Shown piece after piece: positions 4,309-64,000 of a stretch of 64,000 nt of DNA (position 1 is its first letter; each line of letters starts with the position of its first letter). Under the pieces are notes generated by a model. The model ran no database searches. It worked only from the letters and a program-made list of their open reading frames with translations, and had not been told where the DNA came from. A program made the position numbers and the translations under genes. The DNA comes from an uncultured Methylococcaceae bacterium (GTDB lineage: Bacteria; Pseudomonadota; Gammaproteobacteria; Methylococcales; Methylococcaceae), in the NCBI GenBank assembly GCA_903859815.1, contig CAIOOA010000067.1, forward strand, positions 62,001 through 126,000, read 5' to 3'.

Positions 4309-4376
4309 CCCTAGGATTACAGTTGCTCAACTCTCATCTAATCATGTTGGAATTGCCTTGATGGCTTGCTAACCCC

Positions 4377-5526: not shown

Positions 5527-6099
5527 ATGAAAAAGTTACTCGTGATTCTGATGACAATGGGTGTTGGCTTGACTTTTGGAGGCTGCACTGGCTACGGCAA
5601 CAACTCTGGCTATGGGAATAATCCAGGTTATGGCGGAGGCTATGGCTACCAAAATCGGCCACCAACCGGAAACTACCCTCCTGGCTACTATGGTGGAGGG
5701 GGAGGTTACGGGAATTATCCAAACCGTAACCCCAATCAAGGCTATAACCAAGATGCGGCTAAAGTGATGGAACAGAACGCCCGCAATGCCCAACAGTTCC
5801 AAGAAGAAAAAATGAAGGGTGAAATCCAGTTGCAACAGCAACAGGCCGAAATGCTAATGAAACAAAAGCAAGCGGAAATGGAAGTTCAACGACAGCAAGC
5901 CGAATTCTTGGCCAATCAAGAACGGGCCAAACAGCAAGCTGAATGGCAGATGAAACAACAACAGGCTGTCATGGAAGCCGAACGTCAAAAAGGTGAAATG
6001 CAAATCAAGCAGCAACAAGCAGCTTATTTGGCGGAAAAGCAGAAAAAAGAACAAGAAGAGAAATTGCGCCGACAAATGTTGGGGCTGCCACCCCAGTAG
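5527..6099 (+). CDS. Gly/Tyr/Asn-rich lipoprotein with Gln/Lys coiled coil
   Basis: This 190-residue protein of unrecognised family begins with a lipoprotein signal (MKKLLVILMTMGVGLTFGGC), with lipobox FGGC and the lipidated Cys at residue 20. Residues 21-75 are a low-complexity Gly/Tyr/Asn/Pro region with repeated GYGNN- and GGGYGN-type units. Residues 76-185 are a highly charged Gln/Lys/Glu region with repeated QQQAE-like heptads, predicted as a long coiled coil. A CGGAG ribosome-binding sequence sits about 10 nt upstream. It may be an outer-membrane-anchored structural or adhesion protein; function is not known. Both low-complexity regions limit homology inference. Confidence 0.8.
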   Translation: MKKLLVILMTMGVGLTFGGCTGYGNNSGYGNNPGYGGGYGYQNRPPTGNYPPGYYGGGGGYGNYPNRNPNQGYNQDAAKVMEQNARNAQQFQEEKMKGEIQLQQQQAEMLMKQKQAEMEVQRQQAEFLANQERAKQQAEWQMKQQQAVMEAERQKGEMQIKQQQAAYLAEKQKKEQEEKLRRQMLGLPPQ

Positions 6100-6141
6100 C
6101 CGACCAAACCCGACTAATTCTCTGTTAAACAACGCAAAACT

Positions 6142-6175
6142 AGACCGGCTTGGAAGTTAGGCTCCGAGTCGGTCT
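6142..6175. terminator. Imperfect hairpin downstream of the lipoprotein gene
   Basis: Arms AGACCG (6142-6147) and CGGTCT (6170-6175) enclose a second pairing CTTGGA/TCCGAG (one G-T wobble) with an 8-nt loop. It sits 42 nt after the lipoprotein stop. There is no U-tract, so it may be an mRNA 3' stabiliser rather than a classical terminator. Confidence 0.4.
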
Positions 6176-6673
6176 TCACCGCAAACGCCCCTATTGCAGC
6201 GTCCCTTTTACAAATCCTGCGAAATCCCACAAATCGCTATCAGAAGGCAACGCCACTGCACTCAACACTGACTGCATTTCCAACGGTTCAAGCGCAAAGC
6301 ACTGATGTCGAACACGATCTAAAGACCATCTCAAGAAGACTCGATGGCAGGTCAGTTTGGAATTTTATTGCCGTGTGCTTTTTTTTGCATCCAGACATTG
6401 AATACACACGTTCTTGAGCTTTAGCTAACTATAATTGTATTTATGCGCTAAATGACAATGCCTCGGATTTATGCTAATGATAGAATGCTTGATCGTATTG
6501 AGGATGATTGTTGGGACAATCCCTGACTTTTGACTATGAGGGGCAAGGTTAATCATGCAATTAGCTTGAGTCTCATCAACCCGATGCTCAACGGAATGGT
6601 CATTTACGACATTGTCAACTTTATATTCGTCATATTCGTCATGTTTTTTTGGTCTTGAATTAGGGGAATAACT
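6176..6673. other. Non-coding stretch before the secreted repeat protein
   Basis: About 500 bases without a convincing gene. It is AT-rich toward its 3' end and contains a short tandem repeat TATTCGTCA (about 6631-6650) just upstream of the next gene, plus a T-run near 6380. It probably holds the promoter of the following gene; I see no riboswitch or RNA gene I can support. Confidence 0.4.
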
Positions 6674-8593
6674 ATGAAAACGCTAAGTGTTGACCGGCTA
6701 CAAAATTTGACACGGAGATATAAAAGCGGAGGAAAATCAAAATGGTTAATATTATACACTCTCTTTTTGGCATCTTATCTATGTAATCCCCAACAAAGTT
6801 GGGCTGAGGCTGGCACTCAAGCATTGAGGGTGCAAATAGCGGGTGGAGTCAATGGATTGGTAGTCAGTAATGACGGAATTCTCATTTGCGACTCCAACTC
6901 TTGTCAGGGAAGCTACAAAGTCGGAACAGAAGTAAAACTGACGGCAATCCCTACCCAAGCTAACACTCAGTTCGCGGGTTGGTCAGCCAGTTTCTGCACT
7001 AAACCAGACCTAGATCCTCAAGTGTGCCGGTTCATTATGGAGGATAACCTGCCAGTATTGACGGCCACTTTTCAACCCTTTACGCCCAAATCCAGTCGAT
7101 CTGCGATCACCCCAGTAACGTTGTTACTGCTAAAAAGTGGCGAATCGAATGGGCTGGTTGTCAGTAACGACGGCAGGATCAACTGCGATTTTTTCTGCAC
7201 CCAAGCCACCGCAACTTACAACTCCCCAATAGCTGAATATAAACTGACGGCCATTCCATCGCCAAACGTTTCGCGATTCGTGGGTTGGTCGGCAGGTTCC
7301 TGCACCATCCCCGACCCGGATCCCCAAGTTTGCAGATTTCCTTTGGACATCAACAAAACGGTGACGGCCACATTTGAGCCAGTTTATCTGCTAAAAGTTA
7401 TTTTGGGCGGATCGGGCACGGGTCAAGTCACTAGCTCACCACTCGGCATAGATTGCCCTCCAACCTGCGAATTTGCATTTCCAGCAGGCACCATCGTGAA
7501 CTTAAATCAACAACCTGCCAATCAAGTATCCGGTACGGGATGGTTTTTCAATGGTTGGCAAGGGCCTTGCAATGGCAAGAGTGCAACCTGTGTGCTTAAC
7601 CTGAACAAAAACAATATCAGCGTTAACGCCAATTTTGGTGCCATTCGCCAAGACTCGGTTGTTTTCGATTTCTTCAATTATGGCATTTGGTTGTGGAACA
7701 ATAACGATCCATTGCCTTGGAGCCAAATTCACCCCTTGTCATCTGAGCAAATTGTCTCGGCAGATTTGGATGGCAATGACATCAGTGATTTGGTCATGAA
7801 TTTTGGCACATTAGGCTTATGGGTTTGGATGAACAACCAACCATGGGTGCAACTTCACAATACGGCTGTTAACGATGCACCACCGACTAACATCGTCGCA
7901 GCCGATCTAAAGGGTACCGGCAAGGCATCTGACCTGGCAGTTAATTACACCAATCCATTGGGGCTATATCGATATTATGGTGTCAGCCAAGCTTGGGCAA
8001 AATTGAATGGCTCCTCTTCGAAATCCATTACGCCCGCCTTTATGGATGAAAATAAGTTTGAAGACTTATCCATCGACTTCAACCCGAATGCCATGTGGGT
8101 ATGGCTGAATGACCAGTCTTGGTTTCAACTTTTCACGCCGACCGAACCTAATACAATTTTCCCCACAGCAAATGCAGCAGGTGACTTTGATGGCAATGGG
8201 CATAGTGATTTGGCTTATAGCTTTGGCCCTTCGGGAGGGCTTTGGATCTACTGGAACAATCAAAGCTGGAAGAAATTACATAATCTTTCACCCAGTGTCT
8301 TTATTCCAGCCGATTTAGATGGTAATGGCTACACGGATTTAGTCGTAAACTTTGATGGGATTGGGATTTTCGCTTGGATGAACTATCCTAACAACCCAGT
8401 AGGAATATGGGTGAATTTACATCCATTGACCCCAAGAACCTTGGCTGCTGCCTATTTGGATGACAATGCAAAGCAGGATCTCATCCTTGATTTTTATCCC
8501 CCTTATGGAATTTGGCTATACATGAACAACGGACCATGGGAGCAACTTGTGACTGGGCCAAAATCCAAGCAAATTGTTGCAAAACCAAAATAA
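6674..8593 (+). CDS. Secreted repeat protein: InlB-like/bacterial-repeat modules plus FG-GAP-like C-terminal repeats
   Basis: This 639-residue protein has a long N-region and hydrophobic core (about residues 24-40) with likely signal cleavage after SWAEA. Residues 50-330 hold three related modules, each with a G-x-V start, a CxxxC-type Cys pair, an F(A/V/N)GW core and an end like VTATFEP, typical of the divergent InlB B-repeat / bacterial-repeat families. Residues 335-625 hold about six repeats combining W-x-W-NN-x-x-W and acidic D-x-D-G-N-x-x-x-D-L motifs that resemble calcium-binding FG-GAP/VCBS repeats of surface proteins. It is probably extracellular and may bind polysaccharide or surfaces. 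It starts after AGGGGA and ends in a strong terminator, so it is a single-gene unit beside the EPS locus. Confidence 0.8.
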   Translation: MKTLSVDRLQNLTRRYKSGGKSKWLILYTLFLASYLCNPQQSWAEAGTQALRVQIAGGVNGLVVSNDGILICDSNSCQGSYKVGTEVKLTAIPTQANTQFAGWSASFCTKPDLDPQVCRFIMEDNLPVLTATFQPFTPKSSRSAITPVTLLLLKSGESNGLVVSNDGRINCDFFCTQATATYNSPIAEYKLTAIPSPNVSRFVGWSAGSCTIPDPDPQVCRFPLDINKTVTATFEPVYLLKVILGGSGTGQVTSSPLGIDCPPTCEFAFPAGTIVNLNQQPANQVSGTGWFFNGWQGPCNGKSATCVLNLNKNNISVNANFGAIRQDSVVFDFFNYGIWLWNNNDPLPWSQIHPLSSEQIVSADLDGNDISDLVMNFGTLGLWVWMNNQPWVQLHNTAVNDAPPTNIVAADLKGTGKASDLAVNYTNPLGLYRYYGVSQAWAKLNGSSSKSITPAFMDENKFEDLSIDFNPNAMWVWLNDQSWFQLFTPTEPNTIFPTANAAGDFDGNGHSDLAYSFGPSGGLWIYWNNQSWKKLHNLSPSVFIPADLDGNGYTDLVVNFDGIGIFAWMNYPNNPVGIWVNLHPLTPRTLAAAYLDDNAKQDLILDFYPPYGIWLYMNNGPWEQLVTGPKSKQIVAKPK

Positions 8594-8606
8594 GATCAAC
8601 AATCTC

Positions 8607-8662
8607 AACCGGCTACGTTCGTGGTGGAGTTGTCGAACCATGAACGTAACCGGTTTTTTTTT
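8607..8662 (+). terminator. Rho-independent terminator of the secreted repeat protein
   Basis: Inverted arms AACCGG...TACGTTC and GAACGTA...CCGGTT (8607-8619 pairing with 8642-8655) are followed by a run of nine T (to 8662). It begins 13 nt after the stop codon and is the clearest intrinsic terminator in the window. Confidence 0.9.
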
Positions 8663-8688
8663 GAGGTTGCCACGAAATTCGGCTTTAT

Positions 8689-9801
8689 CTAAATCTCCGG
8701 TTTTCTGGCCACTACGACCAACTCCTCGCCCACCACCGGATTGCGCAAAGACAACCGGTCCTCACGTCGTGCCAATTTAGTCAAACCAGAAGGCAATGAA
8801 ATGTCTGCCTCTGGTTTTTGATTCATTGAAATCCGGTGACTGGCCCTGTAGAACCAATGGCTGACCGCCCCAGGCGGCTTAAATTCAACGCCTACGAATC
8901 CAGCCTGCTCCAACGCCAAATTCAGCGCCTTTGGCGAAAACAAAACCAAATGCCTAGGCGGTTCCAGTCCGCGCCAGTCAGCGCCAAAATGCACATGCCC
9001 GGGCGCGTCCATGTTGGGCGTGGCCAGCCAGAAAAATCCACCAGGCTTGAGCAGTCGGTGAATCTCCCGCAATGCAGCCATTGGATCGTGCAAATGTTCA
9101 ATGACTTGGCTCAGCATGACCACATCGAAATTCGCTGTCGGCAACCCTGTATCAGGTAGCGATCCCTGCTTGACCGGAATGCCTTCGTTGGCGGCAGCGG
9201 CGACCGCTGCGGCATCGAACTCAAGCCCTTCCGCCAAATAACCCAAGCTGATGGCCCTGCGAACGAATGCTCCGCTGCCACAGCCGATATCCAGTAATTT
9301 AGCACCATCAGTGGGTGCAGGAAGATGTCTTACATCTCGCTCGGCCAAAGCGCGGGTGGCGGGAAACAACTTCATGATGAGCGAACCCAGCGGATTTGAA
9401 GGGAACATGCCTAAACGGGGAAATCTAGCGTTGAGATAACCATTGCGCATGGGTATAAACCGCTTGCCAAGAGGGGATGTGTCGGAAAGAAAAACCTCTT
9501 TTTTATCAAGGATGTGAGTGTAATATTCCGCATAAGCCAAACCAATTGCGGAAGGTGTGGGACGCGGGTCAACATAACCGCAACCGCAAGCATCACATCG
9601 ATGCAATATCCAAACACCGGGGGCACAAAAAAAAATGCGGTCAGCTAGACTGGCATGTACAACCGATCGCTCCTTGCCACCACAAACTGGACAGCAATTG
9701 ACGGTTTCCTTGCCGTCTTCCGGCCATTCGTTGGTTGCCTGCAAGGCTGCATCCAATGGATTGCCGCCAAAATTCAACTCGTTTTCGTTTCTTGATACCA
9801 T
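8689..9801 (-). CDS. SAM-dependent methyltransferase with N-terminal zinc ribbon
   Basis: This 370-residue protein has a Cys cluster at about residues 37-74 (CPVCGG then CDACGCGYVDPRP), as in the Zn-ribbon of EPS- and O-antigen-linked methyltransferases. A class I Rossmann methyltransferase domain follows: motif I LLDIGCGSGAFVRRA (about 167-181), a post-I acidic GLEFD, and FDVVMLSQVIEHLHDP, as in Methyltransf_11/23 families. Substrate is likely a sugar or lipid-linked sugar given the adjacent EPS genes (inference). It is transcribed away from the glycosyltransferase operon starting at 9881, so the 79-bp gap carries divergent promoters. Confidence 0.85.
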   Translation of the reverse strand: MVSRNENELNFGGNPLDAALQATNEWPEDGKETVNCCPVCGGKERSVVHASLADRIFFCAPGVWILHRCDACGCGYVDPRPTPSAIGLAYAEYYTHILDKKEVFLSDTSPLGKRFIPMRNGYLNARFPRLGMFPSNPLGSLIMKLFPATRALAERDVRHLPAPTDGAKLLDIGCGSGAFVRRAISLGYLAEGLEFDAAAVAAAANEGIPVKQGSLPDTGLPTANFDVVMLSQVIEHLHDPMAALREIHRLLKPGGFFWLATPNMDAPGHVHFGADWRGLEPPRHLVLFSPKALNLALEQAGFVGVEFKPPGAVSHWFYRASHRISMNQKPEADISLPSGLTKLARREDRLSLRNPVVGEELVVVARKPEI

Positions 9802-52631: not shown

Positions 52632-53213
52632 TTACCCGGTTAAAGATTTAATTTTTTTGTCTATGGCCTCACGAGCACGAAAAATACGTGAACGGACTGT
52701 CCCCACCGGACACTCCATTACCTCCGCAATTTCATCGTAGCTTAGGCCATCCATTTCTCTTAAGGTTATTGCCGTCCGCAATTCGCCCGGCAATTCGTCA
52801 AGAGCCAACTGTATTGTCCTACCCAACTCTTCACTGAGCAGTATTCCTTCAGGAGTCTCCTGATCTCTGAGACTGTTCTCACCCTCGAATTGTTCCGCGA
52901 CTTCCATTTCAATTTCATCGTCAGTCGGTCGGCGTGACCGGGCAGCGATGTGATTTTTGGCGGTATTGATGGCAATTCGATAAATCCAAGTGTAAAAAGC
53001 ACTGTCGCCACGAAAACTCGCCATCGCCCGATAGGCTTTGATGAAGGTTTCTTGGGCGATATCCTGCGCCTCATGCGGATCACGCACATAGCGGTTGATG
53101 AGTTGGATGATCCTGTTTTGGTACTTCAGGACTAGCAAATCAAAGGCTTTTTTTTCGCCTTTTTGAACCCTTCTGACCAATTCCTCGTCGACCACTTCTA
53201 CCATGGCAGTCAT
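52632..53213 (-). CDS. rpoE: RNA polymerase sigma-E factor RpoE
   Basis: This 193-residue ECF sigma factor has region 2 (YVRDPHEAQDIAQETFIKAY, then FYTWIYRIAINTAKNH) and region 4 helix-turn-helix (LSYDEIAEVMECPVGTVRSR). It controls the envelope-stress regulon. It leads the rpoE-rseABC-degP-...-pdxJ block and is divergent from nadB, a conserved gammaproteobacterial arrangement. Confidence 0.97.
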   Translation of the reverse strand: MTAMVEVVDEELVRRVQKGEKKAFDLLVLKYQNRIIQLINRYVRDPHEAQDIAQETFIKAYRAMASFRGDSAFYTWIYRIAINTAKNHIAARSRRPTDDEIEMEVAEQFEGENSLRDQETPEGILLSEELGRTIQLALDELPGELRTAITLREMDGLSYDEIAEVMECPVGTVRSRIFRAREAIDKKIKSLTG

Positions 53214-53434
53214 TTCAAACCCAGCCAGGTAGTGCGCAGTGAATTAAAATGCCGCGCCATAAAAAAGCGGGGAATTGGCATATTGTGTGAGGATGGCATC
53301 AATGCTCAGGAAATTTGGTTATTGGTTTTTGGAAGCAACAAGTCATTTTAGGGTACATTATCTTCTTTTCCGGGCTAACGTTCAATCTTGAACAACTTTC
53401 TTGTAGGATGCAACAAAAAAGAGATGACAAAATT

Positions 53435-55048
53435 ATGAATGCAAAAAACCACATGTATGATGTATTAATCATCGGCAGCGGTGCCGCCGGGCTAAGCTTG
53501 GCTCTACGCTTGGCAGACCATACCCGTGTGGCGGTCATTTCCAAAACATCCCTCAACGAGGGCAGCACCTTGTATGCCCAAGGCGGGGTCTCTGCTGTCA
53601 TGGACGAACAAGATTCCATCCAAGCACACTTCGATGACACTTTGATCGCCGGTGCGGGGCTATGCCATCCTGACGCTGTCCGACTGGTGGTGTCTCACGG
53701 CAGGGATTGCATCGAGTGGTTGCAAGCGCGGGGGGTGCCTTTCACTGAAGAGACCTGGGATGACGGAAGTTCAAGACTGCATTTGACCCGCGAAGGCGGA
53801 CACTCGCATCGCCGCGTGGTTCATGCCGCCGATGCGACCGGCAAAGCCATTGAAACGTCGCTGGAACAACATGCCCGACAACACCCAAACATCGAATTGT
53901 TCGAATACCATAATGCAGTCGATTTGATTACTGCCAAAAAACTGGGGGGCCAAACTCAACGCGTTTTGGGTGTCTATGTTCTCGACAACCGGGAACATCG
54001 GGTCAAAACCATGCGTGCCCGCATCGTGGTGCTGGCCACGGGCGGGGCGAGCAAGGTTTATCTCTACACCAGCAATCCCGATGTGTCCACGGGTGATGGA
54101 ATGGCGCTGGCGTGGCGGGCCGGGGCTAGAATCGCCAACATGGAATTCATCCAATTCCACCCCACCTGCCTGTTTCACCCCCATGCCCGTTCTTTCTTAA
54201 TCAGTGAAGCGGTGCGCGGCGAAGGCGGGAAATTGCTATTGCCTGACGGAACCCGCTTCATGGTCAAATTCGACCCTCGCGAAGAACTGGCTCCCCGCGA
54301 CATAGTGGCCCGTGCCATCGACCACGAAATGAAACGTTTAGGCATAGACTGCGTATACTTGGACATCAGCCATAAGGGCGCTGAATTCATTACGAGCCAT
54401 TTCCCCACCATTCACGCAAAATGTCTGGAATTCGGCATCGACATGACCCGCCAACCCATCCCCGTGGTGCCGGCTGCCCATTACACTTGCGGCGGGGTAT
54501 TGACCGATAGCCAAGCCCGCACCGACATACCCGGCTTATATGCCATAGGCGAGGTGGCTTGCACCGGCTTGCATGGAGCCAATCGCATGGCCAGCAACTC
54601 GCTGCTGGAATGCCTAGTCTATGCCAAGCAAGCCTGTGAAGACATTAAACAAATCCTGCCTGACTCCCCTATTCCGCCTGAATTGCCGGAATGGGACGAA
54701 TCCAAGGTCAGCGATTCGGACGAGGAAGTGGTGGTATCCCACAACTGGGACGAATTGCGCCGTTTCATGTGGGATTATGTCGGCATAGTCCGCACTGACA
54801 AACGGCTGGAAAGGGCGATGCGACGGACAGAATTACTGAAGCAAGAAATCGCGGATTATTACGGTCATTTCCGCGTGACCAGCGATTTGCTGGAATTGCG
54901 CAATCTGGTGACCGTTGCCGAACTCATCATTCGCTCGGCACAACTTCGCAAAGAAAGTCGTGGTTTGCACTTCACCTTGGACTACCCGGAAACCAATGAT
55001 AGCCAAACGCCGAAGGATACCGTGTTGGAGCCAGATTCAGTGAATTAG
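53435..55048 (+). CDS. nadB: L-aspartate oxidase NadB
   Basis: This flavoprotein of about 537 residues oxidises L-aspartate to iminoaspartate, the first step of NAD synthesis. The FAD-binding GSGAAGLS motif lies near the N-terminus, with [16 protein letters not shown] and the active-site [14 protein letters not shown] region. The start at 53435 ([19 protein letters not shown]) gives the usual N-terminus; the frame remains open 120 nt further upstream. Confidence 0.95.
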
Positions 55049-55320
55049 CTCGGTTTTGCCGATTGAATACATTATTGATAGACCAATGATTATTGGGCGG
55101 TCGAGGCTTCTTGGGCTTGGGTGATGGATTAATAACGAGAAGGTCAGTAGGTCACTGACGACGCTTGGGCTGTGTGCAGCGGGCGCTTTTCCTGATAGCG
55201 AACTTTTTCCGGGGCAATCCGACGGGTCGGCTGCCGAGGCCGGGCATCACGTCGGAGATTTTGAACGACGACGCGCTTGATCCCCGGTCAATTTTCGACC
55301 GGCGCCAACAGCTTGGCTAA
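55049..55320. other. GC-richer stretch between nadB and the TOMM cluster, possible remnant
   Basis: About 270 bases without a supported gene. The second half (from about 55160) is visibly more GC-rich than its surroundings. It is open in one plus-strand frame for 53 codons with no ATG, ending at TAA 55318-55320, right at the last TOMM gene. It may be a gene remnant at the insertion boundary of the cluster, or chance; I do not recognise the translated product. Confidence 0.35.
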
Positions 55321-55776
55321 TCACAATGGAAGATGGTAACTTTGCGTCCATTGATAATGTACGCGATAAGCCCTAACAAAATCCAAATAGTTATAGCTAG
55401 ATTGGCCGTGCATTGGATCAGCAATCAATATTTCACCCTTGGTAGTCACGCCATGGATTACCACCAAATGCCAGCCAATAAAATAGCGCATACAGGCCAG
55501 TATTGGATTGCCGTTTTCCATGTGTTGCAACAAAACCTCCTTAGGCAAAATGCCAATAGTCTCAATGTAATCCAACCCAATATGGGCCATGGCCTTCAAC
55601 GGGCTACACACCTGATCAAAATTATCGCCATGCACCGAACGGGCGAAATCAATTTGCGAAACGGAAAAGCGCGGAGTGTAGAAACGTTTGACGGAAACCG
55701 CAATAGCGGCCCAGCAAAGCAATTTTCCTTCCTGGGCGTCCATCTCAAAGGGCAAAATTTTATCAACTAACATCAT
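55321..55776 (-). CDS. Stand-alone C39-like papain-type cysteine peptidase of the TOMM cluster
   Basis: This 151-residue protein has oxyanion Gln15, nucleophile Cys21 (QEGKLLCWAA), catalytic His103 (GWHLVVIHGV) and Asp120 (ILIADPMHG), the C39-type triad. C39 peptidases cut leaders after Gly-Gly, and the precursor at 61.6-61.9 kb has VVGG before its core, so it is the likely leader protease. Unlike most bacteriocin C39 domains it is not fused to an ABC transporter. The ATG at 55776 overlaps the upstream stop as ATGA; the open frame extends to 55899 but that part would lie in the upstream gene. Confidence 0.8.
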   Translation of the reverse strand: MMLVDKILPFEMDAQEGKLLCWAAIAVSVKRFYTPRFSVSQIDFARSVHGDNFDQVCSPLKAMAHIGLDYIETIGILPKEVLLQHMENGNPILACMRYFIGWHLVVIHGVTTKGEILIADPMHGQSSYNYLDFVRAYRVHYQWTQSYHLPL

Positions 55777-58058
55777 TGGATTGAAAGTAGTCTCTTCTCG
55801 ATCATCACATTGACCAAATCCACGCAATCGCACATAGCTAGATTTAATGCGTTTGATAATCGCAGCAGACCCATGGGTTGACTTAACTGTTCCATGCATT
55901 GCTGTTCATCTTTAGTCAACTTTAAAGGTTTCAAATATCGCTTGAAATGAACTTGCCATTGATCGTAATCAGACTTGACATAATTGATAGCGCGGCTGGC
56001 AGCCACCCTATATTTGCCGATATGCTCGGCATTCGGCTTATTCAATTCATTGGTAATAGGATAGACCCTCCCTTCGTAGATTAATGTTTGAACATCCCAT
56101 TTCAAACAAGACCAATATAATTCACGCGGAGAGGCAGGCAACTCTATGCCGCATTGATGGTCGGTACATATGCATTGAATTGAAGCAAAATCAATTTGCG
56201 GAAACCACTCGGCAACCATTCCCACAATCAGTTGGTTCAAGCGCATATACGCAGAACCTGAAAACGGCAATAATCCCGCCGCCTTATCATTGCCCAACAT
56301 CAGGCTCCATCCTGCCTGGGAAATGCAAATAGTCGGCTGGTCGCTTGGTGCAATGCGTTTAAAAGGAATGCAACGGGTGTAGGGTGAAACATCATAACCT
56401 AACTTAAATGCCGCATCCAATAATTCCCTACTAAGCTTGGCTGAAATTTCTTCAACATCTGCCTCTTTATTGGACAGCGGGCGGGCAAGAGCCGCCTGCG
56501 CTACGCGAGGTGCAAGTGCTTCCGGCAGTGGCTGGGAAAGCCAGTGGATACAAGCTCGCAGCCAGCATACAAAGGCATGTTTATGGTTGCCTTGTAGATT
56601 ATTCAACTGCGCAAAGCAAAGGTTTACATAGAGTAAGTCGCTTTCATTGCGAAGTTGGTAATTGATGAAAAACCCTCGCTGATAGTAAAGTTCGGCCTGT
56701 GGGTAGTCACCTAGTTTTTTATAAATCCGTGCTTGATTCAAGCAATTGATGTAAATCAAATGCCAATCTGGCTCAGATAATTGTTGCAAATGACCTTCTA
56801 TTTCCTTTTCCAATGCAAGTGCTTCATCTATCTGATTAAGTCTGAGTTTGTTTAATGCTGAAATGTTAAGCAAATATAAGTAAAGCCGAGGATATTCATA
56901 GGAGTTAAAATATTTTCGCGCCAAGTTGAAATAGGGTTCTGCCAGTATCGCCTTATTATTCATCACTAAACCCCAGGCTTTGCTTTGGTATAATGAAGCT
57001 TTAACCACATCTGGCAAGGAGTCTTCTGGCAAACTGCCCTGTGCCGCTCGATTGAAATCCATTAAAGCAATCGAGATGTTTTGCTTTTGAACTTCTACTA
57101 AAGCAGCTTGTAAGGGAGATAAAAGCTCAGCATGAATACCATCAAGTATCGCAAACGCTATTTCATAAGCTCCTTCAGCAAATCTCAACCCAGCCTGCTG
57201 TTGCAGGAATTCCACATCTTGCTTGTAACGTTGCAGTTGATAATACACTTGCAGATGCTCTTCACAGTCTGGCATCGTCATCGGTAGGCAAAGTTCGCCG
57301 CGGCAACGGCAATTTGGGGAAATTAGTATTTTGCCATTTCTTAATTGAAGATAGTCAAATTGAACGGTTGAATGAAATTGGCTGCTATTTCCTTCATCCT
57401 GCAATATACTAGCGTTAATAATACCGGGCATTGAAAAGCCAGCAAATCTATCTTTTATATCGGCACAGTGATTTTGCAATAAAATTTCAAAGCCAGGTAA
57501 GGTCGGCAACTTTTCCAAGCTTGCATCCAACCTTAAAAGCAAGCCAACTTGAAAGCCATACTCAAACCCAGCATCACTCAGAAGCTTGAGCAAATGAACA
57601 TTTTCCATACCCCAAAAGGCATTCTCTAACGGGGCCACAACGAATAAATTTCGTATATTCTGTCCTTGAATCTTGGAGATTAAGACACGAGCAAACTGAA
57701 AAGCTGAGATAAAGTTACGGTCTCCCTCGCTTTCATTGTCAATCAGTTTGCCCACGGTATCGGCATAATGAATCGCTCCCTCCAAATCTGTATATAAGAT
57801 CGGCTGTATGGCTTCAGGCGGGGGCAAGTCTAATTGCGAACCCCACTCACGCGCCAACCAATGCCCACGCCATGGGCCTAAACTCAAATCTGCAAACAGA
57901 CACTCCAATCCAAGATTATCGACACCGATCATCTTGGCCAATTCTTGAAAAGAATTCAAATGCCAAGCATTTAAAACTCGCGTTCCATGCCTGCGAACTA
58001 TGTGAACAGCATCCTCATCATGGACCGGAACAAATTTCAAATCACAGTTGTTCGCCAT
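55773..58058 (-). CDS. 761-residue TPR-type protein of unknown function in the TOMM cluster
   Basis: I do not recognise the family. The N-terminal third (residues 1-265) is a globular alpha/beta region ending in a Cys-rich segment (SPNCRCRGELCLP, about 250-262) that could bind metal. Residues about 280-520 have TPR-like helical pairs (for example ARIYKKLGDYPQAELYYQRGF). The C-terminal 60 residues resemble a small winged-helix or RRE-like fold (LKLTKDEQQCMEQLSQPMGL). It overlaps the SagB gene by 17 nt and the peptidase gene by ATGA, so it is translated with them. It may be a scaffold, recognition or regulatory protein for the modifying complex, or provide self-protection. Confidence 0.75.
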   Translation of the reverse strand: MANNCDLKFVPVHDEDAVHIVRRHGTRVLNAWHLNSFQELAKMIGVDNLGLECLFADLSLGPWRGHWLAREWGSQLDLPPPEAIQPILYTDLEGAIHYADTVGKLIDNESEGDRNFISAFQFARVLISKIQGQNIRNLFVVAPLENAFWGMENVHLLKLLSDAGFEYGFQVGLLLRLDASLEKLPTLPGFEILLQNHCADIKDRFAGFSMPGIINASILQDEGNSSQFHSTVQFDYLQLRNGKILISPNCRCRGELCLPMTMPDCEEHLQVYYQLQRYKQDVEFLQQQAGLRFAEGAYEIAFAILDGIHAELLSPLQAALVEVQKQNISIALMDFNRAAQGSLPEDSLPDVVKASLYQSKAWGLVMNNKAILAEPYFNLARKYFNSYEYPRLYLYLLNISALNKLRLNQIDEALALEKEIEGHLQQLSEPDWHLIYINCLNQARIYKKLGDYPQAELYYQRGFFINYQLRNESDLLYVNLCFAQLNNLQGNHKHAFVCWLRACIHWLSQPLPEALAPRVAQAALARPLSNKEADVEEISAKLSRELLDAAFKLGYDVSPYTRCIPFKRIAPSDQPTICISQAGWSLMLGNDKAAGLLPFSGSAYMRLNQLIVGMVAEWFPQIDFASIQCICTDHQCGIELPASPRELYWSCLKWDVQTLIYEGRVYPITNELNKPNAEHIGKYRVAASRAINYVKSDYDQWQVHFKRYLKPLKLTKDEQQCMEQLSQPMGLLRLSNALNLAMCDCVDLVNVMIEKRLLSIQ

Positions 58059-58863
58059 TTTTTGATCCAGCGCATAATCCGTTCATATAAAGTATCGAAT
58101 GATGCAGTCCATCAAGCTCTAATAGATTATCAATTTTTCGGTCATAAAACCCACCGAGGTTGATCACCCCCATACCCAAAGCAGTAGCTGTCAAATTAAT
58201 GTTTTGGGCAACATGACCTGCCTCAAACAGACAGAAGCGATATCCTTTATTGCGATATTTAAATACCGAGCGTTGAAAAATTGCAGTAATAAAAATTAGC
58301 AAAGATAAGTTTTCCGCCAAATGGGATTGAAACTCAACAAAAGCTTTCGATATTTGCTTAGTATAATTACCTGGTTTAATGAAGTGCAATGCATTTAGTG
58401 AAGGTGAAAAATGATAAATACCTTCTTCCAAGCCTTTAACGTGACCACCATTATAAAAATATAACTCTAGAGGGTATAATCCTCCACCCGATGGCGCACT
58501 TCGAAAAGGACGGCGAACGTATGGATTGTTTTTGTTATCGCGAGTTTCACCATAAGCTAAATGTAATATCGTGCGCAATTGCTCTAAGGAAATATGTTCT
58601 GGCTTGAATTCTCGCGGGGTCACGCGTGAAAGTACAATATCGGAAAATTTTCGATCTATCGGGGATAAAGTATTGGGTAGTGGGATTGGCGGGAAATTAT
58701 TATAAGGCAAGGATTCATACAAATTCTCCATTTCTGCAAGGACTTGTTCGCTTGTCAAGGCTACATCATAACGGCCAGTCTTGGAACTTTCATGGAATTG
58801 TTCCCATGACATGTCAGCAGAATCCGTATCCAGTTCGGTATTTTTCCATAATGTATCTAGCAT
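58042..58863 (-). CDS. SagB-type FMN-dependent azoline dehydrogenase
   Basis: This 273-residue nitroreductase-fold protein has the SagB-type FMN motifs FRSAPSGGGLYPLELYFY (about 119-136) and FCLFEAGHVAQNINLTATALGMG (about 209-231). In TOMM pathways it oxidises azolines to aromatic thiazoles or (methyl)oxazoles. It lies 129 nt after the YcaO gene and overlaps the TPR gene downstream by 17 nt. Confidence 0.9.
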   Translation of the reverse strand: MLDTLWKNTELDTDSADMSWEQFHESSKTGRYDVALTSEQVLAEMENLYESLPYNNFPPIPLPNTLSPIDRKFSDIVLSRVTPREFKPEHISLEQLRTILHLAYGETRDNKNNPYVRRPFRSAPSGGGLYPLELYFYNGGHVKGLEEGIYHFSPSLNALHFIKPGNYTKQISKAFVEFQSHLAENLSLLIFITAIFQRSVFKYRNKGYRFCLFEAGHVAQNINLTATALGMGVINLGGFYDRKIDNLLELDGLHHSILYMNGLCAGSKNGEQL

Positions 58864-58992
58864 TGGACAGCCTTTGTTTAAATGGTTGAAATGTGCCCGT
58901 TTAGTTTAGGACATAGCGTCAAGAGAGTGGACTGCTATTGCAAAAGACTTGTCATGATTGTTTGCAACCATAGCCAATAGCAGGCTTAGCTA

Positions 58993-60324
58993 TCAAGGAA
59001 ACGGATGCGGAAAAGGGTAATCGCCGATGGCTGGATCAATTCCCGCGTAGCCTAGCTTTTGTGGAATGTTCCATAATCGTTTACCACCTAATGGACGGTG
59101 ATGGAAGCCCATGAATAAAGGATGGTAGCCTGGAATCAAACCCCGTAAGACATGCATTCCAAGAAATTTAATATCCGGTGAGGTGATATCAGAGACTAGC
59201 GCCCGATAACCGGTTTCGTTTATGCGAGCAACCATTCGCTCCAAACTTAACTTAGGGTCGCCCAAGTCGAAATCCGGTAGTTCATTATAGTCTTTGAAAT
59301 CTTGCGAAGCAAAGAGAAACTCAGCGTGACAAGTCACGGCAGGGTTAACCCAAAAGTTGACATGGTCAACTTGCCCAGTAATATTATCATACTCTGGGTG
59401 TGCTGCTATGCGCGGGAGCTCAGCCTTAATTTGATAAGCATAACGCTCGGTGTGTGCGAGTTCTTCCAATGCTTTTCGGATCGCTTCCTCAGCGCTCAGG
59501 GCAACTGAAGCGGACACTACAATCGGTACAAAATCGCCTGAATGCCGTGCGACGGCCATCACCGATGGAATCCCCGTTTCATTGCTGATGTCCATCAAAT
59601 AAACCTTATAATTCACCGCTTGAAAGCGTTTAATTAAATCGAGATTAGCCGCAGAAAGAGTTTCTTGCCGGATTTGCGGTCGAGATAAGTGAGCTTGCCA
59701 TGTAATCATAAAGCAGTCTCGCTCAATCACCTCACACAAAGCACCGATGGCAGCTTCCGCATAGCTACAGTGACAGGATAAGCCAGTTGATATCGGTTGT
59801 GTGATCGGTGTCTCTTCACCGTTCTCATAAAAGAAATAGGGGACATAAACCATTGAAGCAGGTACATGTGTAACGCTATTGGTAAATAGGTCACGAGCAG
59901 GAACCCACCTGACTTTAGAGGACTTCAGGAAAGGGTCAAACATAAAAGCTTCAAAGCTGTGTTGAAGGTTCGAATACAGCACGAAGTCTTCGGGATCAAC
60001 ACAATCGAATGGGGCTTGATCAAACGAAGCGAGCGGAAAAGCCTCTTTGTCATAAATAGCAGCGCAGTAGCGCTCGATAGCCTCACCTATCGTCTTTGCT
60101 AAAGCCATATCGCGCCGAATTGATGCCCCTCCCCCGACGGCAAAATTGCGGTATTCGCCAAAAGCTTCGGTATTAGCTGCCGTGCAGTTGAAACGGAAAA
60201 AACGCGGGGAGTCAGTCTCGGCGGGATGTTCCCGAACATTGCCAATGATTCCAACCTTATTGTCGAAAATATAAGGTAGGGCATCGCTTAGTCGGCTTAA
60301 GGGAGTGCTAACTTCAATTTTCAT
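58993..60324 (-). CDS. YcaO-domain cyclodehydratase with PxPxP C-terminus
   Basis: This 443-residue YcaO protein has the ATP-binding E-x-x-E-R motifs (GEAIERYCAAIYDKE, GALCEVIERDCF, LEELAHTERYA) and ends FPHPFP within YPFPHPFP, which contains PxPxP, the hallmark of azoline-forming YcaOs. It uses ATP to activate amide backbones so Cys/Thr side chains cyclise. The start at 60324 (MKIEVSTPLSRLSDALP) follows GGGAAC and overlaps the partner gene by 11 nt. The partner E1-like protein is encoded separately, so it is a split cyclodehydratase. Confidence 0.95.
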   Translation of the reverse strand: MKIEVSTPLSRLSDALPYIFDNKVGIIGNVREHPAETDSPRFFRFNCTAANTEAFGEYRNFAVGGGASIRRDMALAKTIGEAIERYCAAIYDKEAFPLASFDQAPFDCVDPEDFVLYSNLQHSFEAFMFDPFLKSSKVRWVPARDLFTNSVTHVPASMVYVPYFFYENGEETPITQPISTGLSCHCSYAEAAIGALCEVIERDCFMITWQAHLSRPQIRQETLSAANLDLIKRFQAVNYKVYLMDISNETGIPSVMAVARHSGDFVPIVVSASVALSAEEAIRKALEELAHTERYAYQIKAELPRIAAHPEYDNITGQVDHVNFWVNPAVTCHAEFLFASQDFKDYNELPDFDLGDPKLSLERMVARINETGYRALVSDITSPDIKFLGMHVLRGLIPGYHPLFMGFHHRPLGGKRLWNIPQKLGYAGIDPAIGDYPFPHPFP

Positions 60325-61420
60325 AGTTCCCAACGGTCTGGCGAATTTCATCCCAATCTTGACTTGAAGTCAGCCGCTTGTAAACATTGACCAAAGGAAC
60401 ATCATGCAAGCCGCTGCAAATTGGACAACGTGGTGCTTTAAGTAGCTTGCGGCGGGTCATGCTGCCCCCCAATAAATCCATCTCGCACAAGGTTCCAACC
60501 TCCCATTGAATATTCGATTTGAATTTTATCAAATCAAATTGCGCTACAGCCGCCAACACCTTCAGCATGGATTGGTGGTAGGCCACCACTTTTTGTCCTG
60601 CAAATGCATATTTCTCTGTTTGCCTACGTTCTTCAAAAGAAGAGTTTTGCGAATTCTGTCGGGCCTTCAAACAGGCAAAGCAGGCTGTTTCGTGAGGTAT
60701 GACAAGGGGCCCAGCATAACCGACCATATTTTGCAACAATACGGGATAAAAACTTAGGCCAGACTCCACCGCAAATTGATTCCAGCGTTCCAGCAAATAA
60801 AAACTACCAAACTCGGAAGCCGCAACCACGAAGCCAAAATTAAAAATCTGCACTGCATCTCCGGCAAAAACCTCGTCCTCTGATATGATTTTGTTGCTTA
60901 GTTTTTGCCAAAACTCCGATGTCAATTGATGATTGGCATCGAAATTATCAATATTGCGCAACATCGGGTCATCGACAATGCAGTAATTATCCAACCCTTC
61001 GTTCAGCATTACCTGTAACAATTCTTGAGTGAGTTGGTTTATGCCAACAAATACCCAGCATTTTTCATTTAATATGGATGCAATCTGCTGTTGATGCAAA
61101 TTGAAATGCCAATAAAAAATGTCTTGAGCACTTTCCTCAATGATATTACCCCGCTCCATTCCATCGGATTGCATCAGCAAAAAACGCTTTTTGATTAAAT
61201 GATCTATAAGGTTTGAAATTAATGGCCTTATTGGGCCGGTAAACAATGTCAGCAGATCGTCGGCACTACGTGGTTGCTGGAGCAAGGCTTTTTGAATGAC
61301 TCGAATGATAAGAAGAGCGTTCTTATCCGGTATGAGCATTTGCTCCAAACCCCTCTTAAGAATGATGCCATCATCTTGCTCGATGACTTGTATAGGCAGA
61401 ATAATCAGTTTTTGGTCCAT
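60314..61420 (-). CDS. E1-like TOMM cyclodehydratase partner (leader-binding RRE protein)
   Basis: This 368-residue protein has an N-terminal RRE-like winged-helix region (LIILPIQVIEQDDGIILKRG, then ALLQQPRSADDLLTLFTG). The central Rossmann-like part has YAGPLVIPHETACFACLKARQ and the C-terminal zinc knuckle CPICSG, with CFAC as the other pair of zinc cysteines, as in ThiF/E1-like partners of YcaO. It binds the precursor leader and presents it to YcaO. It follows the precursor by about 170 nt. Confidence 0.88.
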   Translation of the reverse strand: MDQKLIILPIQVIEQDDGIILKRGLEQMLIPDKNALLIIRVIQKALLQQPRSADDLLTLFTGPIRPLISNLIDHLIKKRFLLMQSDGMERGNIIEESAQDIFYWHFNLHQQQIASILNEKCWVFVGINQLTQELLQVMLNEGLDNYCIVDDPMLRNIDNFDANHQLTSEFWQKLSNKIISEDEVFAGDAVQIFNFGFVVAASEFGSFYLLERWNQFAVESGLSFYPVLLQNMVGYAGPLVIPHETACFACLKARQNSQNSSFEERRQTEKYAFAGQKVVAYHQSMLKVLAAVAQFDLIKFKSNIQWEVGTLCEMDLLGGSMTRRKLLKAPRCPICSGLHDVPLVNVYKRLTSSQDWDEIRQTVGNYEN

Positions 61421-61534
61421 CGTCTATCCATAATAAATCATTTGATTAATGTAATAAATGAAGTGGTTCGATGCATCAGCATTAAACGCATGCAGGATGG
61501 CTTAATGTGCCTCGTGAAAACGATCAAATATAAG

Positions 61535-61573
61535 TCCTTGTTGCCATTCATTCCAAACGAATGACAACAAGGA
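61535..61573 (-). promoter_or_regulatory. Hairpin between precursor and modifying genes
   Basis: On the coding (minus) strand CCTTGTTG pairs with CAACAAGG (61536-61543 and 61565-61572) and CATTC with GAATG inside, leaving one mismatch and a 9-nt loop. It begins 18 nt after the precursor stop and has only a weak T-rich 3' flank. Such a structure can stabilise a short precursor mRNA or partly terminate, giving more precursor than enzyme. Confidence 0.6.
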
Positions 61574-61590
61574 AGTCAATGCAATTAAAC

Positions 61591-61902
61591 TTATGCTGCC
61601 CGCAAAACGGCGACAGCCGTGCAGCAGCAAGCTGGGGTGCAGGTACAGCAACAGCAGGCACCTCCCACGACCGGGGAGTTAGAAGAACCGTACAAACTAT
61701 GCTTTCTGAATGCCTCCTCAATCGAGTTAAGGTCACGCACATTCAATTTGTCAGTACGAACGGTGTTATTTTTCCATGCCAATGCATACAAATCCCCTTC
61801 CAGCAATTGGCGCGCGTTCTCAGTCAGAATCGAACTGTCTTCACCTTCTAATAGATTGGTGATGGGATTGTCAAACTCTGGAATGTCTCTAAAAGAAGCC
61901 AT
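61591..61902 (-). CDS. TOMM precursor peptide with Cys-rich core
   Basis: A 103-residue peptide. The leader (1-81) is acidic and helical (ITNLLEGEDSSILTENARQL, then LNVRDLNSIEEAF) and ends SPVVGG; the core (82-103) reads A-CCCC-T-C-T-PA-CCC-TAVAVLRAA. The core holds eight Cys and three Thr, almost all in the first 13 positions, and only one Pro, as expected for a polyazole. The start (ATG 61902) is preferred over the longer frame to 62016 because GGGG is spaced correctly and the upstream part is hydrophobic and atypical. The core has no Ser, so only thiazoles and methyloxazoles could form. Confidence 0.92.
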   Translation of the reverse strand: MASFRDIPEFDNPITNLLEGEDSSILTENARQLLEGDLYALAWKNNTVRTDKLNVRDLNSIEEAFRKHSLYGSSNSPVVGGACCCCTCTPACCCTAVAVLRAA

Positions 61903-62219
61903 GTCGTATACCCCAAAAAAATGAATTATTAACAACGTAGATACCCCTGAGCTTAGAACCGACCTGACGCGACGCGATGGACTAAGGCAAAGTCCCTGTA
62001 GCTTGATGTAAGGCATGGTTTTCTAAGACCCACTAAAATTCTACACTATTTTTTTCCATCAGAGCAACAATTTATTTACCCAATCTAAACAATTGAATTC
62101 TTTGAATAACAATGCTTTTTTCTCGCGCCCCGTTTACCGGGAAGCCCAAAACCCACCTAATTTCGAGCATTGGTCAAAACTCCGCCGTTACTTTGCAGAT
62201 GGAGTTCATCAGACCTAAT

Positions 62220-62937
62220 TCTGAAGATCGCCATTGCTGCCGAGACCGGGCTAGTCCCGAACTTCAAGGGGTTTGAGCGGGTACTGGAACAATTGCTGGA
62301 GGCGGCGCACTTGCCAGAGCATAAGTCTGTCAATGGAACGCTTCATGAACCGATTGAAGGTGTTAGCATGGCTTACACCTTCGAAAATCCAATAGCAGAA
62401 AGCCAACACAAGACCAATATTTCGAAATATTCGGCAACCGTGGGATTTACCAGAACGGATGGTTTACAGGCACTGTGCCTAGGACACCTTGGGAACCAAA
62501 GCCACGGGCGAAGTTAAATTAGGACAAATGGGAATTCTATGACAACCGATCTGACTTCAGCCTAGCCAAGGATTGGGCTACGTAAATCTCGAACAAGAGC
62601 GGCAAACCGACTTACGTCTATAACTTCTAGGGGAGTAAACGCTCTATTCGGTTAATGCCGCCAAACCCCTGTCGCCGGGCAAGAACAGTCTCCGTTTCGA
62701 GTTTGCCTATGATGGCGGTGGATTAGGCAAAGGGGGGTTGGCATACTCTTCGTGATCGGCAAACAGGTCGCTCAGGTACGTATAGATCAGATGCAGCCGA
62801 TGATTTTCTTATCCGGCGAGACAGCCGATGTCGGCGAAGATGATGCCACGCCGGTGACAGAAAATTACAATGAACCGGACATCCAGTTCACCGGCACGAT
62901 TCGGCAGGTGACAGTGGCTTTGCAACCAGTTTCATAG
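62220..62937 (+). pseudogene. Decayed arylsulfatase (C-terminal fragments)
   Basis: Fragments in three frames match conserved sulfatase segments. VLEQLLEAAHLPEHKSVNG and PIEGVSMAYTFENP are followed by a one-base deletion near 62417, after which QYFEIFGNRGIYQNGW continues. Stops occur at 62520-62522 and 62583-62585. A large internal part is missing, and the end VRIDQMQPMIFLSGETADVG to TVAL closes the fragment at 62937. The active-site N-terminal half is absent. It is a dead arylsulfatase gene next to the TOMM precursor. Confidence 0.85.
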
Positions 62938-63152
62938 AGCTTTGTTCTAAAGCCTGAGTCAATTCAGTGTCATCACCCAATTTGTACCTCCGCAATGGAT
63001 CGTTCAAAAGCTTACACTGGCATAATCCTACATTTACTTTCCATCTTCCAAAGCGAGAAGTGATGAGGCTTTCCAAGCATTCACAACCTAATTCAGTGGA
63101 ATCCGATTATACTAAGGCATAATCCAATTGAATTGCCAGCTTTGCAACCATC

Positions 63153-64000
63153 ATGTTAACTGTTTTAATCGTCGATGACGCGCCGGAAAATCTGTCGATA
63201 CTCAATGATTTGCTGCGGCCTTATTACCGAGTGCGCGTGGCAAACTCCGGCATTCGCGCATTGCGAGTGGCTAACAGCGAACCCAAACCGGATTTGATCA
63301 TGCTCGATGTGATGATGCCGGGCATGGATGGTTACGAAGTCATCACCAAGCTAAAGGACGACCCAAACACCACCGATATCCCAGTCATTTTTGTCACCGC
63401 TTTGGAAAGCAGTGCCGATGAAGAGCGCGGCCTCATGCTGGGCGCAGTCGACTACATCACCAAACCGCTACGCCCTGCGATCGTCATACAAAGGGTAAAA
63501 ACCCATTTGGAGTTGAAGGCCGCCCGAGACTGGCTAAAAGACCGCAATGCGGTGCTTGAAGCTGAAGTGGAACGACGAATGGAAGAAAACCTACTGATAC
63601 AAGATGTCAGCATCCGAGCATTGGCGCATTTGGCCGAAATCCGCGACTTGGAAACAGGCAATCATTTGCGCCGCACCCAGGGCTATGTTCAGGTTTTAGC
63701 CATGCACTTGAAATCACATCCGCGCTTCAGCAATTTCCTGACCCCACGCAACATTCAGTTGCTGCTCAAATCCGCCCCGTTGCACGATATTGGAAAGGTG
63801 GGCATACCTGACCACATTCTCCTTAAGCCCGGAAAGCTGACGCCAGAGGAACATGAGATCATGAAAACCCATAGCCAAATGGGTTATTTTGCACTTGAGC
63901 AAGCTGAGAAAGATGCCGAGCGGCCCATTGATTTTCTTGCAATTGCCAAAGACATCGCCCTTTGCCATCATGAAAAATGGGATGGCTCAGGCTATCCTGC
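63153..64000 (+). CDS. HD-GYP domain response regulator (cyclic-di-GMP phosphodiesterase type), truncated by window end
   Basis: The frame is open from ATG 63153 to the window end (282 residues). A receiver domain (1-122) has LIVDDAPENLSIL, acceptor Asp in DLIMLDVMMPGMDG and Lys in DYITKPL, followed by a helical linker (about 125-150) and an HD-GYP domain: RDLETGNHLRRTQGYV, APLHDIGKVGIPDHIL (catalytic HD) and HHEKWDGSGYP. It likely hydrolyses cyclic-di-GMP and would lower EPS-type behaviour, but its sensor is not in the window. Confidence 0.93.
   Translation, partial: MLTVLIVDDAPENLSILNDLLRPYYRVRVANSGIRALRVANSEPKPDLIMLDVMMPGMDGYEVITKLKDDPNTTDIPVIFVTALESSADEERGLMLGAVDYITKPLRPAIVIQRVKTHLELKAARDWLKDRNAVLEAEVERRMEENLLIQDVSIRALAHLAEIRDLETGNHLRRTQGYVQVLAMHLKSHPRFSNFLTPRNIQLLLKSAPLHDIGKVGIPDHILLKPGKLTPEEHEIMKTHSQMGYFALEQAEKDAERPIDFLAIAKDIALCHHEKWDGSGYP

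What the first reader, a model, noticed from the sequence alone, without database searches (positions are those of the whole stretch)
55321..61902. Compact TOMM (azole-modified peptide) cluster with a Cys-dense core
Six minus-strand genes encode a precursor, E1-like partner, YcaO with PxPxP end, SagB-type dehydrogenase, a TPR-type protein and a C39-like peptidase. The core has eight Cys and three Thr in its first 13 residues, mostly contiguous, with no Ser. Established knowledge: YcaO plus E1-like plus SagB makes thiazoles and methyloxazoles. Inference: the product is a short polythiazole peptide. I recognise no characterised product with this core.
Basis: partly seen in the sequence, partly recalled or inferred. 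Interest (0 to 1): 0.95.

Follow-up and report, generated by a model that had tools for sequence, protein, structure and literature searches.

The report
Widely shared polythiazole peptide gene cluster
A compact six-gene cluster, present in the same gene order in five bacteria from at least two phyla, encodes a small protein with a cysteine-packed tail together with enzymes predicted to turn that tail into a chain of sulfur-containing rings; the tail is almost unchanged across most relatives, no product was found in the papers searched, and what the product does would still have to be tested.

Summary
Window 55,321-61,902 (minus strand) holds a compact six-gene TOMM/LAP (azole-modified peptide) operon: 103-aa precursor, E1-like leader-binding partner, YcaO ending PFPHPFP, SagB dehydrogenase, 761-aa TPR protein and papain-like peptidase. 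It is one copy of a widespread family with no precursor model of its own in NCBIfam or Pfam. The same six genes in the same order lie in Brenneria, Pectobacterium betavasculorum, a Balneolaceae MAG and a Tistrella mobilis megaplasmid; precursor relatives also occur in Bacteroidota. The core CCC[T/S]CTP(A)CCC[T/C]A is intact in 61 of 74 aligned precursors. No such YcaO was found in 120 other genomes of the order; the cluster is GC-poor and in a variable site, so likely acquired horizontally. It differs from streptolysin S-like TOMMs (no run of 9-10 ring-forming residues in 73 of 74 precursors; no CaaX protease or exporter found alongside) and from gallolytisins (no Cys4-X-Cys4). Likely mechanism: the leader binds the E1-like protein; YcaO and SagB make up to eight thiazoles; the peptidase cleaves after GG/GA/GS; the TPR protein, STAND-like without a Walker lysine, would act as a peptide scaffold. 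Chemistry, export and activity are untested. A new variant of a known kind.

The parts
61591..61902 (-). Precursor peptide gene (103 aa): leader 1-81 ending PVVGG, predicted core ACCCCTCTPACCCTAVAVLRAA (82-103)
   Evidence: Start at 61902 set by alignment to relatives; the longer frame from 62016 is not supported by them.
61535..61573 (-). Stem-loop (18 pairs) just after the precursor stop codon, before the E1-like gene; likely attenuator or mRNA end that raises precursor dose
   Evidence: hairpins of different sequence right after the precursor stop also in L001, L002 and L003, only a 6-pair stem in L015 (no shuffle control for these). The number of terminator-like sites in the region is not above shuffles (11 versus 8.5, sd 3.3).
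60314..61420 (-). E1-like (C) protein, 368 aa, predicted leader-binding partner; CxxC...CxxC (C247, C250, C332, C335)
   Evidence: TIGR03882 over cut-off, TIGR03603 below its own; the four Cys invariant in the 4 rows of A5.
58993..60324 (-). YcaO (D) cyclodehydratase, ends PFPHPFP
   Evidence: PF02624 E 4.5e-61, TIGR03604 259.8 bits; profile aligns with TruD and LynD over 75-443; start placed at MKIEV by alignment A4.
58042..58863 (-). SagB-type FMN dehydrogenase (B), 273 aa
   Evidence: TIGR03605 137.2 bits; solved relatives include McbC and CyaGox.
55773..58058 (-). 761-aa TPR protein: N-terminal alpha/beta domain, TPR superhelix about 265-525, C-terminal domain; predicted peptide-binding scaffold
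   Evidence: AlphaFold mean pLDDT 92; best Foldseek match STAND-TPR 6mfv E 4.9e-6 but TM 0.27/0.31, rmsd 13.3; residue 66 is Lys in 0 of 63.
55321..55776 (-). Papain-like (C70/C39-like) peptidase, 151 aa; Q15, C21, H103, D120; predicted leader peptidase
   Evidence: PF12385 36.5 bits versus 19; Q, C, H and D in 45 of 45 rows.

Best explanation
This is a likely horizontally acquired operon of a widespread, unnamed TOMM family whose precursor core is nearly frozen, and its enzymes are predicted to turn that core into a short polythiazole peptide that is likely released by the operon's own papain-like peptidase. Shown: six genes, their order in five loci, family membership of four enzymes, conserved catalytic residues, core conservation and purifying selection. 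Inferred, step by step: the leader, predicted as a compact helical domain, would be held by the E1-like protein; YcaO would cyclise Cys (up to eight, perhaps also Thr) to azolines with ATP; SagB would oxidise them to azoles; the peptidase would cut after the GG/GA/GS motif, giving a peptide of about 22 residues ([M+H]+ about 1976.6 with eight thiazoles); the TPR protein would bind precursor or product as a scaffold or holder. Export would use a pump encoded elsewhere, or the product may stay in the cell. Most likely role, untested: an antibacterial or other small-molecule weapon with one conserved target.
For: Curated C, D, B and peptidase models over cut-off. Six genes in the same order in the window, L001, L002, L003 and L015. 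Of 74 aligned precursors, 61 fit CCC[TS]CTPA?CCC[TC]A and 62 have G[GAS] at most one residue before the first CC. Peptidase Q, C, H and D in 45 of 45 rows (the window is present twice). 22 of 39 precursor contig lengths of 6 kb or more recur in the TPR list and 9 in the peptidase list; precursor and TPR distances correlate over 22 pairs (r 0.49, reached by 0 of 2000 permutations). Acquisition: YcaO of this family in 1 of 121 genomes of the order (its own), not in the 6 other congeners searched; cluster GC 0.43-0.44; the alignment with four relatives stops at the nadB end.
Against: No product, expression or modification data exist here. 12 of 74 precursors lack G[GAS] at the expected place and 13 of 74 do not fit the core pattern. 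The Tistrella peptidase is just under the PF12385 cut-off (18.3 versus 19). No exporter or immunity gene was found nearby, which is odd for a secreted weapon. The STAND resemblance rests on a low TM-score.
Confidence: 0.72

Rival explanations
1. It is a distant streptolysin S-like cytolysin cluster whose contiguous azole stretch makes a membrane-active peptide.
For: NCBIfam TIGR03602 gives the best weak match to the core (18.2 bits; 20 of 74 members at E up to 0.1, best 2.6e-5) and NF033222 matches 3 of 74; discrete C, D and B proteins as in cytolysins (PMC4603692 section 8).
Against: 18.2 bits against a cut-off of 35. Longest ring-forming run is 4-7 in 73 of 74 precursors, 11 in one, where the cytolysin papers describe 9-10 or 10 and more. 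Papain-like peptidase in place of a CaaX protease; no ABC transporter in the flanking frames scanned. The window's leader matches no cytolysin model outside the core.
Confidence: 0.12
2. The modified precursor, leader included, is the functional molecule and stays in the cell: a small azole-bearing protein used as a metal ligand, sensor or signal.
For: The leader is strongly conserved and predicted to fold (pLDDT about 90 over residues 11-70; whole model 76, pTM 0.58); no exporter found beside the five loci; the core is nearly frozen.
Against: A G[GAS] leader end in 62 of 74 and a peptidase with intact catalytic residues in all five loci argue for cleavage; conserved leaders are also expected for enzyme binding.
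Confidence: 0.13
3. The copy is silent or decaying cargo in a hypervariable site.
For: Not found in congeners, GC-poor, next to a stretch (about 62.0-63.1 kb) without frames over 115 aa.
Against: All six frames are open with conserved catalytic residues; YcaO 61-70% identical to three distant loci; low dN/dS between Brenneria and Pectobacterium copies.
Confidence: 0.08

Closest known systems
Cytolysins (streptolysin S-like TOMMs)
   Same: Discrete C and D proteins, SagB-type B protein, Cys-dense core after a Gly-ending leader; weak TIGR03602 match
   Different: Broken core (6-7 ring-forming residues, Pro(-Ala), then 3-4), hydrophobic AVAV tail, papain-like peptidase, TPR protein, no ABC genes found alongside
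Gallolytisin (uncharacterised TOMM group, PMC4603692 section 24)
   Same: Two blocks of contiguous Cys separated by a short linker; discrete cyclodehydratase
   Different: Gallolytisins have Cys4XaaCys4, ABC transporters and a regulator; here CCC(C)TCTPACCC and neither found alongside
NHLP and Nif11 leader TOMMs (proteusins)
   Same: Long, likely structured leader; GG-type end
   Different: No match to an NHLP or Nif11 model; stand-alone peptidase rather than a peptidase-ABC fusion
Microcin B17 and TldD/E-processed LAPs
   Same: C/D/B azole chemistry; SagB relative of McbC
   Different: Different core (microcin B17 core recalled, not compared); own papain-like peptidase instead of TldD/E (PMC10885120 passages)
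STAND NTPase-TPR proteins (6mfv)
   Same: Order of an alpha/beta domain then TPR (domain order of STAND proteins recalled); Foldseek E 4.9e-6
   Different: The position that would hold the Walker A Lys is His in 59 of 63, Lys in none; low TM-score

Membership tests
TOMM / linear azole-containing peptide cluster | YcaO (D) protein with C-terminal PxPxP | tested here: met
   TIGR03604 259.8 bits over 219.25; ends PFPHPFP
TOMM / linear azole-containing peptide cluster | E1-like leader-binding partner (C) protein | tested here: met
   TIGR03882 43.7 over 36.9; TIGR03603 83.9, below its own 187.65
TOMM / linear azole-containing peptide cluster | Adjacent precursor with Cys/Ser/Thr-rich core | tested here: met
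   61594-61902; eight Cys, three Thr in 13 residues
TOMM / linear azole-containing peptide cluster | Azole or azoline rings in the product | not testable with these tools
   Needs enzymes and mass spectrometry
Cytolysin (streptolysin S family) | Precursor over the TIGR03602 cut-off | tested here: not met
   18.2 bits versus 35 for the window precursor
Cytolysin (streptolysin S family) | 9-10 or more contiguous heterocyclisable residues at the core start (PMC4513790, PMC4603692) | tested here: not met
   7 in the window; 4-7 in 73 of 74, 11 in one
Cytolysin (streptolysin S family) | CaaX-like protease and ABC transporter genes in the cluster | tested here: not met
   Not among the six genes or the flanking frames scanned with Pfam
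Gallolytisin | Cys4XaaCys4 core motif | tested here: not met
   CCCCTCTPACCC in the window; motif taken
NHLP / Nif11 leader TOMM | Leader matched by NHLP or Nif11 models | tested here: not met
   No such match at E up to 1 for the window precursor in Pfam or NCBIfam, nor among the 8 NCBIfam families matched by the 74 members
Heterocycloanthracin | Fused C/D protein plus ocin-ThiF-like F protein | tested here: not met
   C and D are separate genes; TIGR03693 19.7 versus 561.9
Papain-like peptidase (PF12385) | Model cut-off and intact Gln/Cys/His/Asp | tested here: met
   36.5 over 19; Q15, C21, H103, D120 in 45 of 45 rows. The Tistrella one alone scores 18.3, just under. That these four are the catalytic residues is recalled.
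STAND NTPase (TPR protein) | Walker A lysine | tested here: not met
   Position 66: His 59, Gln 2, Tyr 1, Cys 1 of 63; which position would hold the Lys is my reading of the model
STAND NTPase (TPR protein) | Overall fold | tested here: inconclusive
   6mfv best by Foldseek E 4.9e-6, TM 0.27/0.31; the VIA list covers mostly residues 214-606

The most novel reading that the evidence does not exclude
A distinct class of azole peptide that spreads across phyla with a frozen polythiazole warhead, has no exporter of its own, and relies on a dedicated pseudo-STAND TPR protein that carries the peptide together with a cytosolic papain-like peptidase that frees it: a delivery logic not seen in any of the TOMM families whose atlas sections were read.
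Probability: 0.3. Interest if true: 0.75.

Novelty: new variant of a known kind. Interest (0 to 1): 0.56.

Why it matters
[quoted passage not shown] Here the core is almost the same from soft-rot enterobacteria to Bacteroidota and Balneolota, which points to one conserved target or function that a single purified product could reveal. The cluster is small (6.6 kb, six genes) and so is directly testable, and it brings two unstudied parts, a TPR protein and a stand-alone papain-like peptidase, into azole-peptide biosynthesis.

Tried and rejected
Filing it as streptolysin S-like: the best family hit pointed there, but the defining run of ring-forming residues and the accessory genes are not met. 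Filing it as gallolytisin, heterocycloanthracin or NHLP/Nif11: see Membership tests. Anti-phage defence: no PADLOC match at E up to 0.001 for any of the six proteins. Viral carriage: no relative confirmed in viral contigs for the TPR or precursor alignments, none in phages. A long precursor start at 62016: relatives start at the 61902 equivalent. VIA-align of the TPR model lists TPR-type matches and hardly tests the N-terminal domain; absence of other folds there means nothing. The precursor model had no PDB match at E up to 0.001. The PDB sequence search with the peptidase profile found nothing at E up to 0.1. G275 gave one borderline precursor match (E 5.7e-4, residues 59-99 only) in a stretch overlapping a universal-stress-like ORF (my reading); taken as chance. 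Not done: a YcaO tree against reference TOMM classes.

Rows dropped: A7 uses the window and 73 of the first 76 hits (P0003 is the window itself; P0017 and P0030 left out), and none of P0077-P0120 nor of the 24 unlisted hits. A8 uses the window and 62 of 71 hits (P0122, P0125, P0134, P0136, P0146, P0157, P0162, P0169 and P0176 left out; P0125 is the window); itself scored only the 7991 candidates sharing most words. The peptidase count uses 43 of 50 hits (P0235-P0241 left out), the window and Tistrella; P0195 is the window again, so 44 distinct proteins. Contig lengths: 76 precursors, 70 of 71 TPR hits (P0135 has none listed) and 50 peptidases; the 22 pairs include the window, and where two precursors share a length one was used. 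Flank scans with Pfam: all non-cluster frames of at least 110 aa found for L001 (7), L002 (10) and L003 (5), nine frames of L015 chosen by eye, and eight on the nadB side of the window plus nadB and the response regulator. Transport-related hits among them: an amino-acid permease beside a lysine decarboxylase (L001), SecG (L002), ArsA and an aquaporin (L003); no ABC, MFS or MATE exporter. The mirror-tree test does not remove shared ancestry. (genome contigs) uses exact peptide patterns of one YcaO and so finds close relatives only.
Full report
What is there. On the minus strand, 61,902 down to 55,321, six genes follow each other closely: precursor (103 aa), E1-like protein (368 aa), YcaO (443 aa from the start chosen here, ending PFPHPFP), SagB dehydrogenase (273 aa), a 761-aa TPR protein and a 151-aa papain-like peptidase. 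Three junctions overlap (E1/YcaO, SagB/TPR, TPR/peptidase). Curated cut-offs are exceeded for the E1-like, YcaO and SagB proteins and the peptidase; the window's precursor and TPR protein exceed none in NCBIfam or Pfam. Solved relatives of the YcaO are TruD, MusD and LynD, of the SagB protein McbC and CyaGox, of the E1-like protein, weakly, MccB (E about 7e-4).

The precursor. The leader ends PVVGG; the predicted core is ACCCCTCTPACCCTAVAVLRAA. A profile search gave 144 proteins at E up to 0.01, of which 120 were listed. Among 74 aligned close members the string CCC[TS]CTPA?CCC[TC]A occurs in 61 and CCCTCTPACCC in 58; counted from the first CC, the core has seven Cys in 59 and eight in 12. Positions C85, C92, C93, C94 and A96 are invariant in the core. 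P0023, named Cyclobacterium (Bacteroidota), has the window's own CCCCTCTPACCCT. Named carriers include Brenneria, Pectobacterium, Massilia, Paraburkholderia, Pandoraea, Sphingomonas, Bradyrhizobium, Cyclobacterium, Fulvivirga and Membranihabitans; a TPR relative is in a Nostoc MAG. Brenneria and Pectobacterium precursors differ at dN 0.057 and dS 0.81; the more distant pairs gave no dS estimate. The leader is predicted to fold as short helices with pLDDT near 90 for residues 11-70, the core as disordered; the whole model has mean pLDDT 76 and pTM 0.58.

The cluster is a unit. Five loci carry all six genes in the same order: the window, L001 (Brenneria sp. hezel4-2-4), L002 (Pectobacterium betavasculorum NCPPB 2795), L003 (Balneolaceae MAG; phylum Balneolota) and L015 (Tistrella mobilis plasmid pTM3, typed as conjugative). 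YcaO identities to the window are 70, 68 and 61% and 49.9%. The Tistrella copy is the most diverged: E1-like 30%, SagB 44%, peptidase 26% identical, the peptidase just under its Pfam cut-off. A strong hairpin follows the precursor stop in four of the five. In the protein lists, 22 of 39 precursor contig lengths of at least 6 kb recur in the TPR list and 9 in the peptidase list, and precursor and TPR distances correlate over those 22 (r 0.49; 0 of 2000 permutations as high).

It is patchy and likely mobile. A YcaO of this family (E up to 1e-60) is in 1 of 121 genomes of the window's order, that one being its own; the six other genomes of the genus in that search have none. A TPR relative is in 2 of 398 genomes of the phylum, one being the window's own and one distant, and in only the starting genome of 394 and of 119 in two other groups. 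The 2-kb bins of the cluster have GC 0.43-0.44; the other bins 0.42-0.54, mostly above 0.45. In four relatives the match to window 53,001-64,000 stops at or just before the nadB end (54,987-55,063) and nothing further matches; in the two whose genes were listed, different genes follow. The Brenneria copy lies about 2 kb from a tRNA-Phe with an integrase-type Arm domain beside it, the Pectobacterium copy about 0.8 kb from a tRNA-Leu. No ABC, MFS or MATE exporter was found in the flanking frames scanned of the five loci (coverage under Tried and rejected).

The two unusual parts. The peptidase keeps Gln, Cys, His and Asp in 45 of 45 rows. A review passage states that several RiPP classes have cysteine proteases that cut after GG, GA or GS, most commonly as peptidase-ABC fusions (PMC10885120, passages); here there is no fused transporter, and 62 of 74 leaders have that motif. 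The TPR protein is modelled with mean pLDDT 92. Its best Foldseek match is a STAND-TPR protein, but the N-terminal pocket, with invariant D57, G61, D107, E109, G112 and P143, has His where I place the Walker lysine (59 of 63; Lys in none), so ATP use is unlikely. Peptide-binding TPR proteins (Rap, NprR, PlcR) are among the matches, as are many TPR proteins of other function. I infer a scaffold or holder.

Comparison with known families. In the 2015 TOMM atlas (PMC4603692; abstract and sections 5, 8, 15, 21, 22, 24 and 27 read) no group described there has this core. Gallolytisins, with Cys4XaaCys4 and ABC transporters, are nearest by pattern. Cytolysins have 9-10 or more ring-forming residues in a row (PMC4513790, passages; PMC4603692 section 8), a CaaX protease and ABC genes; the window has a run of 7, and 73 of 74 precursors have 4-7. 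Nine paper searches were answered. The listings, which showed 20 of 23, 15 of 54 and 15 of 37 papers, held none that I recognised as being on this family from title and start of abstract, and the exact core strings were in no held paper. Most subscription papers are missing from that library, so a description elsewhere is possible.

Verdict. A real, intact, likely horizontally spread TOMM/LAP operon of an apparently undescribed family: a new variant of a known kind. Azole formation follows from the enzyme families; number of rings, cleavage, export and activity are predictions.

Noticed in passing
P0077, P0079, P0082, P0088 (metagenome proteins): Precursor look-alikes with a Tat-like N-terminus (RREFLR, hydrophobic stretch, SSA) before a CCCTCTPCCSCCASSVV-type core: a modified precursor that might leave by the Tat pathway. 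The Tat motif is recalled, not scored.
   Followed up: no
P0077-P0120: A wider group of precursors, many sharing the leader pattern LT..A..LTKGDL..L...LT..DL.SI..AF, with other Cys-dense cores (CCTCTPCCSCCA, CCCCTPCCCCTA and others), including Azospirillum and Pseudonocardia; ten proteins scanned (nine of them from this group) have no NCBIfam match near a cut-off.
   Followed up: partly
L009 (genome G713): A distant TPR relative directly after two frames that look by eye like JmjC/cupin hydroxylases, with no precursor of this family found in that genome: the TPR protein may serve other pathways.
   Followed up: partly
contigs listed with length 18683 (P0040, P0042) and 86261 (P0047, P0052): Two different precursors with near-identical cores on contigs of the same listed length, so some clusters probably carry twin precursor genes.
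   Followed up: no
L025 (genome G444), 4202-9000: The nearest relative (nadB 98% identical in protein) has unrelated genes at the same site, looking by eye like remnants of restriction-modification and nucleotidyltransferase systems: the 3' side of nadB looks like a hot spot for foreign cargo.
   Followed up: partly
window 62020-63150: About 1.1 kb between precursor and response regulator gene with no open frame over 115 aa; may be a decayed or regulatory stretch.
   Followed up: no
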